64,000 nt of DNA from Salinarchaeum sp. Harcht-Bsk1 (GTDB lineage Archaea; Halobacteriota; Halobacteria; Halobacteriales; Salinarchaeaceae), in assembly GCF_000403645.1 (NCBI RefSeq), contig NC_021313.1:1755014-1819013 (forward strand), written 5' to 3'. Position 1 is the stretch's first letter, and each line of letters begins with the position of its first letter. Below are positions 9,421 through 59,958 of the stretch, in pieces. Position numbers and translations under genes: made by a program. The notes under the pieces are model-generated. The model was not told the origin of the DNA, did not search any database, and worked only from the letters and a program-made list of their open reading frames with translations.

Positions 9421-9837
9421 CTTGGAAGCCCCCTCCCGCTCGCGCTCGCTCGGTCGCTGTGCTCCTCGGCTCGCTGCCGCTCGCCTGTGGTGCTTACTTC
9501 CCGAGCGAACGCGACCGGTCGGCCCCTTCCAGTCCCACCCGATGGTATTCCCACCGATCGCGAAACCCCGGTGGACCACCTCGGCGCGCGCTGCCGCTGG
9601 CTGCGAGCCGCTTTCCGGCGAGCAGCCAGTCGCGCGACACCGTGCGAGGGCCGAGCACCGCAGGCCGGAGGCCGAGGAGCGCAGAAGGCTGGGGAGGAAT
9701 GAGGCTGCGGTTGGGTGGGGCATCGAAAGGGGCCGGGCGGTCGGCGGTCCCCGGGCGAAGTAAGGACCGCAGCCGAGCGCAGCGAGGCGAGGACCGCAAC
9801 GAGCCCCGGGATTCCGAGCGCTCGGGGGCTTTCGGAG
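9421..9837 (+). repeat. Dispersed intergenic element, copy B
   Basis: This copy begins CTTGGAAGCCCCCTCCCGCT and ends CTCGGGGGCTTTCGG. The inner left arm GGCCCCTTCCAGTCCC is at about 9511-9540. The right arm near 9713-9744 has drifted (GGCATCGAAAGGGGCCGGG). The core at 9599-9656 is identical over 58 bases to copy F at 48459-48516. The two core hairpins of copies A and D are replaced here by a short imperfect palindrome near 9657-9680. It lies between the purS promoter and the guaAb stop, 40 bases past that stop. Confidence 0.85.
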
Positions 9838-12449: not shown

Positions 12450-12534
12450 ACTCAGGGTGGGTCGGGGGCCGCAAAAACCGTTTCGGAGCGGGTGGGTCGC
12501 TGGTCGTCCGCGCACGTTTGCCACGCCGGCCGTC

Positions 12535-12654
12535 TCGCCAATCACCACGCTAGCTGCTTCGCCAATCGGCACGCCAGCCATCTCGCCAATCACCACGCTA
12601 GCTGCTTCGCCAATCGGCACGCCAGCCATCTCGCCAATCTGCACCCACTGGCTG
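12535..12654 (+). repeat. Five tandem 24-bp units upstream of pyrG
   Basis: Units of 24 bases start at 12535, 12559, 12583, 12607 and 12631. Each opens TCGCCAATC. Two unit types alternate: one continues ACCACGCTAGCTGCT, the other GGCACGCCAGCCATC. Units 1-2 are repeated exactly as units 3-4, a 48-bp higher-order repeat, and unit 5 is degenerate. The array lies about 85 bases before the pyrG start, outside the core promoter, and about 110 bases before the divergent membrane gene. Confidence 0.85.
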
Positions 12655-28734: not shown

Positions 28735-28846
28735 GGCCGCATTCGGGCCGATGGCCGCAAAAGGTCGGCGGTTCGTGGGCACGCCTCCGACTCCTACGCG
28801 ATCGATTCGGCGTTCCAGCGGGCTTCGCGAGCCTCCGCACTCTTAT

Positions 28847-29087
28847 CGGGCGGGACTGGAAGGGGCCGACCGGTCGCGTTCGCTCACGAAGGTGAGCCGA
28901 GCGGAGCGAGGCGAACGTCGAAAGACGAGCGAAGCGAAGTCTTTCGGAATAAGCACCGCAGGTGAAGGAGCGGAGTCCTGTCGAGCGAAGTGAGACAGGG
29001 CTCGGGAGAGGAGCGGAGCGAGTCTCCCGGCGCGACCGAGCCGAGGAGCGCAGCGAGTGAGCGAGCGAGAGCGGGAGGGGCTTCCAG
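28847..29087 (+). repeat. Dispersed intergenic element, copy C (right half only)
   Basis: This copy starts at the inner right arm, with GGGACTGGAAGGGGCCGACC, and runs to the outer right end GCGGGAGGGGCTTCCAG. The left arm and core are absent. The middle has an eight-base stem, CGAAAGAC with GTCTTTCG, around 28918-28945, and many GAGCGAAGCGAG-type blocks. It sits in the divergent gap between the DUF5807-like gene and the dehydrogenase, 113 and 105 bases from their starts. Confidence 0.8.
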
Positions 29088-42250: not shown

Positions 42251-42772
42251 GCCTACGGATTCCGGGAGATCTCCGATCTCCCGACGTCGCGGCTTGCGCC
42301 GCGACAGCCCCCTCCCGCTCGCGCCCGCTGACTCGCTGTGGTCCTCGGCTCGCTGACGCTCGCCTGCGGTCCTTGCGTCGTCAGCGAACGCGACCGGTCG
42401 GCCCCTTCCGGAGCCCCGCCCATTGTGTTTGGGTAGTATCGCGAATCTCCGGTGGACCCCCTCGGCGCGCGCTGAGCGATGGCCGCGAGCCCCCCGCGGG
42501 CGAGCGGCCAATCGCCGACACCGTGCGAGGGCCGAGCGATGCTGGACCGGAGGTCCAGCAAGTCTGAGGCTTCGCCTCAGGCAACGCAGCGAGCGTCAGC
42601 GACGCGAGTAGCGCAGAAGGCTGGGGAGGAATGAGGGTGCAGTCGGGTGGGACTGGAAGGGGCCGACCGGTCGATCCGCCCCCGGCGAAGTAAGCACTGG
42701 AGCGAAGGAGCGTAGCGACTGAGGGAAGCGCGCAGCGAGCCGCGGCTGGTCGAGCGGGCGGGGGCTTCCAAG
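42251..42772 (+). repeat. Dispersed intergenic element, copy D (outer end interrupted by hairpins)
   Basis: The left boundary CCGCCTACGGA is shared with copy A. But between GGA and AGCCCCCTCCCGCTCG, where copy A is continuous, copy D carries 46 extra bases (42260-42305) that fold into two perfect hairpins: arms CGGGAGATC around TCC, and arms GTCGCGGC. The rest has inner arms at about 42391-42420 and 42643-42673. The same two core hairpins as copy A are at 42541-42559 and 42564-42580. The right end is CGGGGGCTTCCAAG. It separates leuS from the ocd-like gene, 47 bases from the ocd-like stop. Confidence 0.85.
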
Positions 42773-48379: not shown

Positions 48380-48790
48380 CTTGGAAGCCCCTGACCGCAC
48401 GCGGTGAATGGTCCACGCTGCGCGAAACCCCGGTGCCCCACGTCGGCGCGCTGCCGCCGGCTGCGAGCCGCTTTCCGGCGAGCAGCCAGTCGCGCGACAC
48501 CGTGCGAGGGCCGAGCGATGCTGGATCGAAGATCCGGCAAGTCAGTGGCTTCGCCTCAGGCACCGCAGCGAGTGCAGCGAAGCGAGCGAGGGCTCGGAAG
48601 TCGCAGCCCGCGAGCGGAGCGAGCCGGACCGTCTTCCGGTGCAGAAGGTTGGAGAGGATCGAGGCGCGGTGGGCGGGACATCGAAAGGGGCCGACCGCTC
48701 CGGGAAGCACGGCGAAGGAAGTACTGGAGCGACCAGAGGGAGCGAAGCGCACAGCGAGCCGCGCGACCGGAGCAGTCGGGGCTTTCGAAG
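48380..48790 (+). repeat. Dispersed intergenic element, copy F
   Basis: The outer ends are CTTGGAAGCCCC at 48380-48391 and CGGGGCTTTCGAAG at about 48777-48790. The inner left arm is missing. The core at 48459-48516 is identical over 58 bases to copy B, 39 kb away. The core hairpins of A and D are present but imperfect (GCTGGATC with GATCCGGC at 48520-48538). The inner right arm reads GGACATCGAAAGGGGCCGAC. It lies between the stops of rnhA and the aminopeptidase, at 51 and 47 bases. Confidence 0.85.
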
Positions 48791-59698: not shown

Positions 59699-59790
59699 GA
59701 AAGCTCGCACGCTAGCTGGCGACGGCCGCTCGCCGGCGAGCGGTTCTCGACCGATCGCCGTCGGTGCAAGCTCCGACGTGGTTCGCCTCG
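59699..59790 (-). repeat. Fragment G of the dispersed element, inverted orientation
   Basis: The complement of 59704-59733 matches copy A at 2472-2501 in 29 of 30 bases. The following minus-strand bases, ACCGCTCGCCGGCGAGCGG, resemble the GAGCCGCTTTCCGGCGAGC core module of copies B and F. Neither outer end nor inner arm is visible. It is the only piece seen in the opposite orientation, between the SDR and the TrpD2-like gene. Confidence 0.65.
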
Positions 59791-59958
59791 CTACCGCTCG
59801 GCTCACCGCCAGCGCGCGCAGACGCGGAAATTCGAGCGTGGCGATTCTTGGAAGACTCCCCCAGTACCACCCGCAACGCGCCCGGCGTTCGAACACGTTC
59901 GTCCAGCGATTCACGCGGGAACGACGGGCCTTTGCCGACGAACCACGAACGCGCGGGC

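What the first reader, a model, noticed from the sequence alone, without database searches (positions are those of the whole stretch)
9599..9656. 58-bp core segment identical in copies 39 kb apart
Bases 9599-9656 (copy B) and 48459-48516 (copy F) are identical over 58 bases although the flanking parts of the two copies have diverged. Exact identity in non-coding DNA suggests recent copying, gene conversion or strong selection on the core. The segment runs from GGCTGCGAGCCGC through TTTCCGGCGAGC to GTGCGAGGGCCGAGC.
Basis: seen in the sequence. Interest (0 to 1): 0.75.

Follow-up and report, generated by a model that had tools for sequence, protein, structure and literature searches.

The report
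Structured repeat family shared by haloarchaea
The identical 58 bases are one recently copied patch between two of about 34 scattered, non-coding repeats in a salt-loving archaeon, and those repeats belong to a family, found in more than half of the haloarchaeal genomes checked, whose core keeps an RNA-like folded shape and is absent from the RNA family database.

Summary
The 58-bp identity (9599-9656 = 48459-48516) is exact and far beyond chance, whose longest run is 18 bp. It is not special to the core. Among 34 copies in this genome (Salinarchaeum, 3,255,260 bp) it is the 7th longest shared run of 561 pairs; others reach 124 bp and lie in arms or inserted hairpins. Copies are mosaics: flanks match the syntenic site in S. 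laminariae while the element matches other sites. The 58 bp is best read as an ectopic gene-conversion tract. The carrier is the better find: a 400-635-bp intergenic element with inverted arms around a ~120-nt core whose helices show strong compensatory change, also in held-out sequences, with more G-U than A-C on one strand. The core occurs in 157 of 293 genomes of the order, up to at least 142 copies per genome, not seen outside the order in 295 phylum genomes, without an Rfam match. No transposase, reverse transcriptase or target duplication explains its spread. Function is inferred, not shown.

The parts
9424..9833 (+). Copy B, whole element (410 bp), between purS/purQ and guaA; ends GGAAGCCCCC...GGGGGCTTTC
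9424..9530 (-). Left arm: inverted copy of the right-arm module
   Evidence: sequence
9583..9704 (+). Structured core matched by covariance model R1 (100.5 bits)
9585..9590 (+). Helix P1, 5' strand (CGCGCG)
9641..9646 (+). Helix P1, 3' strand (CGTGCG); its G-U pair is kept in many copies
9599..9627 (+). Hairpin P2: GGCTGC-GA-GCCG-CTTTC-CGGC-GA-GCAGCC with a symmetric GA/GA internal loop
9599..9656 (+). The 58-bp segment: P2 hairpin, P1 3' strand and the first part of P3; not a structural unit
9650..9684 (+). Helix P3: repeats GAG-XAY-C ... GAG-XAY-C pair with each other (X1:Y2 and Y1:X2 covary), capped by a variable hairpin
9687..9697 (+). Near-invariant unpaired motif GGYTGGGGAGG
9725..9833 (+). 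Right-arm module GAAAGGGGC...GTAAG...GGGGGCTTTC
48398..48786 (+). Copy F; P3 is split by an inserted hairpin module after 48516
48459..48516 (+). Partner of the 58-bp identity
2232..2866 (+). Further copy (shares 68 bp exactly with the 42303 copy)
28766..29085 (.). Further element-like stretch, no core match by R1
42303..42769 (+). Further copy
59704..59819 (.). Partial element-like stretch

Best explanation
The 58 bp is a tract copied, directly or through a third copy, between two members of a dispersed, non-coding, multicopy element by ectopic gene conversion or another form of short homologous recombination. The element is old and stays at the same places in the genus, but its copies keep exchanging short pieces and so evolve in concert. 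Its core belongs to a haloarchaea-wide family of structured sequences that are selected as single strands, most likely as RNA read from the + strand (helices P1, P2 and P3, then GGYTGGGGAGG). Shown: identity, mosaic copies, equal core and arm divergence, compensatory changes, wide distribution. Inferred: that conversion rather than repeated reinsertion moves the pieces; that the folded form is RNA; that it works as a protein-bound element in transcripts that read through the spacer. My rough confidence is 0.75 for the conversion reading and 0.6 for the RNA reading; the figure given is for the combined statement.
For: Runs of 30-124 identical bases in 93 of 561 copy pairs, scattered over all parts of the element. 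Copy F best matches copy B in the core, then L019/L021, L032/L018, L030 and L020 further on; S. laminariae copy L158 matches its syntenic partner in the flanks but mostly other sites inside. True ortholog ranks 21, 11, 12 and 1 of 33 for four syntenic cores. Core pairing: 96.7% of cells, 66 double changes against 24 shuffled, covariation 0.371 against 0.165; in 58 sequences not used in that alignment, 112 against 37 and 0.550 against 0.167, at most 0.11 with slid partners. G-U over A-C in the core: 36 against 3; P2 wobbles inside helices 21 against 7. Arms: 119 against 132, no excess. 31, 23, 142, 89, 64 and 31 copies in six genomes. Efficient gene conversion is documented in polyploid Haloferax volcanii (PMC8223754, PMC11276520; abstracts read only), though between genome copies, not between dispersed repeats.
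Against: No transcript data were available, and no promoter analysis was done. Orientation to neighbouring genes is mixed, so many copies may not be transcribed from a gene on their own strand. ssDNA hairpins could also produce compensatory change, and the many C(GNA)G triloops are typical of very stable DNA hairpins (the DNA stability is from my own knowledge). Reinsertion at the same spot could imitate conversion. Donor and direction between B and F are not determined; a third copy could be the source. The G-U counts are cells, not independent events.
Confidence: 0.6

Rival explanations
1. A mobile non-autonomous transposable element (a small mobile repeat or MITE); B and F are recent products of one transposition.
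For: Inverted terminal arms, no recognisable gene of its own, dozens of intergenic copies, clear ends GGAAGCCCCC...GGGGGCTTTC.
Against: B and F match closely only in the core and not in the arms: F's right arm is closer to L030 (0.92) than to B (0.84). No consistent target duplication. Of eight sites with both flanks together in S. laminariae, seven are occupied there and the eighth holds unrelated sequence rather than a clean empty site. Average copy divergence is high.
Confidence: 0.15
2. A single-stranded DNA element mobilised through its hairpins by a Y1 (HUH) transposase, like PATEs or REP elements.
For: Strand-biased hairpins, GNA triloops, no target duplication, intergenic location; PATEs are known in Haloquadratum (PMC3119063).
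Against: No Y1 transposase (PF01797) in four genomes with 23-142 copies, while the control search finds it in Haloferax volcanii. No TnpB in the host genome, and 16 of 17 tnpB loci from related genomes lack the core; the one hit lies at the locus edge.
Confidence: 0.08
3. Strong purifying selection on the core sequence keeps the 58 bp identical.
For: Part of the 58 bp, such as CGTGCGAGGG, is nearly invariant across genera.
Against: The P2 hairpin, about half of the segment, varies among copies with compensation; core divergence equals arm divergence.
Confidence: 0.05
4. A structured DNA site (cruciform or recombination hotspot) rather than RNA; its role is in chromosome dynamics.
For: At 11 of 19 element junctions with both flanks mapped the flanks are separated in S. 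laminariae, against 0 of 7 control junctions, Fisher p = 0.010; arms are inverted repeats.
Against: The core's G-U excess is strand-specific, which a double-stranded site does not predict. Many separated flanks in S. laminariae carry no element now. Controls come from one 64-kb stretch.
Confidence: 0.12

Closest known systems
Small mobile repeats (SMR) of Haloquadratum walsbyi (PMC3119063)
   Same: Short, non-coding, terminal inverted repeats, no target duplication, many copies in a haloarchaeon
   Different: Here a ~120-nt core with covarying helices spans many genera; new insertion between strains not shown
PATEs, palindrome-associated transposable elements, heterogeneous type (PMC3119063)
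   Same: Divergent copies, palindromes, no target duplication, carry further inserted repeats, too short for a transposase
   Different: Here the terminal arms are inverted copies of one another, and no likeness to IS605-type (tnpB) loci was found
REP/BIME elements and other bacterial intergenic palindromes
   Same: Many intergenic hairpin copies with strand-biased structure
   Different: Much longer, three-helix core with long-range pairing; no RAYT/Y1 transposase in four genomes that carry it
IS200/IS605 omega RNAs (PMC12558985)
   Same: Structured haloarchaeal RNA tied to repeated DNA
   Different: Not associated with tnpB here, and the host genome has no TnpB match
Candidate structured RNAs found by comparative genomics (e.g. 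PMC2864571)
   Same: Defined by covariation, function unknown
   Different: No Rfam 15 family matches; copy number per genome is unusually high

Membership tests
Known Rfam family | Score above the family's gathering threshold | tested here: not met
   (nothing at E <= 0.1 in ten loci of several genera)
Structured RNA family | Compensatory changes beyond shuffled and slid controls | tested here: met
   (second set held out)
Structured RNA family | Transcribed from the predicted strand | not testable with these tools
   no RNA-seq data
MITE | Terminal inverted repeats like those of a known transposon, usually with target duplication | tested here: inconclusive
   arms are inverted repeats, no target duplication; ISfinder not available
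SMR (Haloquadratum) | Terminal inverted repeats unrelated to transposons, no target duplication, too short for a transposase | tested here: inconclusive
   no target duplication, 400-635 bp; relation of the ends to transposons in general not tested
PATE / IS605-type | Near-terminal palindromes like those of IS605-type transposons | tested here: not met
   against 17 tnpB loci of G001, G057 and G279
PATE / IS605-type | No terminal inverted repeats | tested here: not met
   the arms are inverted copies of each other
IS200/IS605 omega RNA | Located at the 3' end of tnpB | tested here: not met
REP with RAYT | Genome encodes a Y1 transposase | tested here: not met
   absent in G000, G001, G057, G040
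Retroelement or group II intron | Reverse transcriptase in the genome | tested here: not met
   none in six genomes
Gene-conversion tract | Short shared tract inside copies whose flanks and arms have other closest relatives | tested here: met

The most novel reading that the evidence does not exclude
Haloarchaea carry a previously undescribed family of multicopy structured RNAs, ~100-130 nt core plus a 3' hairpin module, kept in up to at least 142 intergenic copies per genome by selection on the fold, spread and homogenised by recombination rather than by a transposase, and bound in trans by a host protein through the GGYTGGGGAGG motif and the P3 helix.
Probability: 0.35. Interest if true: 0.78.

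Novelty: new variant of a known kind. Interest (0 to 1): 0.6.

Why it matters
If the fold is used as RNA, more than half of the haloarchaeal genomes sampled hold one to over a hundred copies of a structured RNA that current annotation misses: the stretch is unannotated in the two plasmid records examined. The copies also give a natural assay of ectopic gene conversion in presumably polyploid archaea, because compensatory pairs mark which tracts moved, and they may be frequent rearrangement points.

Tried and rejected
Rfam gave only chance-level matches. The arms as an RNA rod: complementarity within a copy is no better than between copies and G-U equals A-C, so arm-to-arm pairing is not under RNA-type selection. 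A 3'-UTR rule was suggested by some loci, but over 60 copies the orientation is mixed: upstream gene on the same strand in 5 of 20 Salinarchaeum, 9 of 20 G057 and 14 of 20 in the third set. A first gene-calling heuristic misread some genes and was replaced. Omega RNA, Y1 and reverse-transcriptase routes were tested and not supported. Viral and phage collections had no match at the sensitivity used. Empty-site search gave no clean empty site. My P3 wobble count was spoiled by conserved mismatches and is not used. Literature searches found no description of this family, but the library lacks most subscription journals.

Full report
OBSERVATION. Bases 9599-9656 and 48459-48516 are identical and the match stops on both sides. 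Chance gives at most 18 bp in a sequence of this make-up. The window matches a single 3,255,260-bp chromosome, the length reported for Salinarchaeum sp. HArcht-Bsk1 (PMC3715672); the nearest purQ relative is Salinarchaeum laminariae.

WHAT CARRIES IT. The 58 bp lie inside a dispersed element. Copy B spans 9424-9833 between purS/purQ and guaA. In the host genome 34 loci carry the core; those with both ends found measure 399-635 bp, from GGAAGCCCCC to GGGGGCTTTC. Left and right arms are imperfect inverted copies of one another. A core of about 185 bp lies between them. Some copies carry further inserted hairpin modules; copy F has one directly after the 58-bp segment.

IS THE CORE SPECIAL? No. 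Pairwise identity is the same for left arm, both halves of the core and right arm (0.87-0.88; permissive gap costs, so the comparison matters more than the level). The 58-bp run is seventh among 561 copy pairs; the longest is 124 bp, in an arm. In the window itself two other copies share 68 bp.

HOW THE IDENTITY AROSE. Scanning in 70-bp windows, copy F is closest to copy B in the core and to other copies elsewhere. A copy in S. laminariae is closest to its syntenic partner mainly in the flanks; inside, the best match changes from copy to copy. For four syntenic sites the true ortholog ranks 21st, 11th, 12th and 1st of 33 in core similarity. Short pieces therefore move between fixed places. Ectopic gene conversion is the simplest mechanism; efficient conversion between genome copies is reported for Haloferax volcanii (PMC8223754, PMC11276520).

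STRUCTURE. The core keeps three helices. In 36 sequences from several genera, 96.7% of cells pair, with 66 double-sided changes against 24 in shuffles. In 58 further sequences the P3 pairs give 112 against 37, and sliding the partner destroys the signal. In P3, two repeats GAG-XAY-C pair with each other: X1:Y2 is CG 27, GC 10, TA 9, AT 8, and Y1:X2 is TA 23, CG 14, GC 14, AT 2. The P3 helix had been recognised by eye, and A6 was chosen by conserved flanking motifs, so A6 is held out for sequences but not for the idea. G-U pairs outnumber A-C pairs in the core (36 to 3 in A3, of which 25 are one conserved P1 pair; 21 to 7 inside P2 helices) but not in the arms (119 to 132). This points to single-strand function of the + strand core, most simply RNA. 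Single-stranded DNA is not excluded.

DISTRIBUTION. A covariance model matches 157 of 293 genomes of the order and 47 of 87 genera. In 295 genomes drawn from the phylum every genome with a match belongs to the same order. Copy numbers in six genomes are 31, 23, 142, 89, 64 and 31 (at most 150 candidates were scored per genome, so 142 is a lower bound). Four plasmid records, of Halobaculum and Halorussus, carry it. Viral and phage collections gave no match. In genome G057, 14 of 20 sampled loci hold two copies facing each other. Almost all of 60 sampled copies lie between genes.

MOBILITY. No consistent target duplication. No Y1 transposase in four of six genomes, including two with 142 and 89 copies; no reverse transcriptase in any of six; no TnpB match in the host. 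Of eight element sites whose flanks are still adjacent in S. laminariae, seven hold an element there. Flanks are separated at 11 of 19 element sites against 0 of 7 control junctions. This suggests that copies act as rearrangement points, but controls are few, come from one region, and many separated ends carry no element now.

VERDICT. The 58-bp identity is ordinary once the family is seen. The family, an Rfam-absent structured core in many copies across haloarchaea, is the part worth pursuing. Its role is unknown; a protein-bound RNA in read-through transcripts is my best guess, not a result.

Noticed in passing
window 12533-12639: 59-bp exact tandem overlap (period 48) in the N-terminal part of the ORF that holds pyrG; the translation shows repeated [16 protein letters not shown], possibly upstream of the real start.
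   Followed up: no
L245, L247, L248, L250, L251, L253-L257, L260, L261, L263, L264 (genome G057): Core copies come as convergent pairs a few hundred bp apart at most; in loci read by eye a palindromic spacer (GCAGTAGCTAGC...GCTAGCTACTGC) lies between them.
   Followed up: partly
L077 3493-3620 with L009/L017; L170 with L020/L028: In S. laminariae the left arm of copy B sits next to the gene that neighbours another copy in the host genome, and a second junction joins neighbours of two other copies: rearrangement through the elements.
   Followed up: partly
L019, L021, L027, L032, L012: A nearly identical inserted double hairpin (GATGCTGGACCGGAGGTCCAGCAAGTCTGAGGCTTCGCCTCAGGC) splits P3 in several copies, like a small repeat that targets a larger one.
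   Followed up: partly
P2 apical loops outside Salinarchaeum (e.g. L183, L252, L279): The apical loop is often a five-base YTYRT (CTCGT, TTCAT, TTTAT, CTTGT), which may be a binding signature.
   Followed up: partly
L265 about 2300-2600: Tandem array of a short unit containing GAGCGGGTCGAGGGCTTTCATCGCC downstream of a core in genome G279.
   Followed up: no
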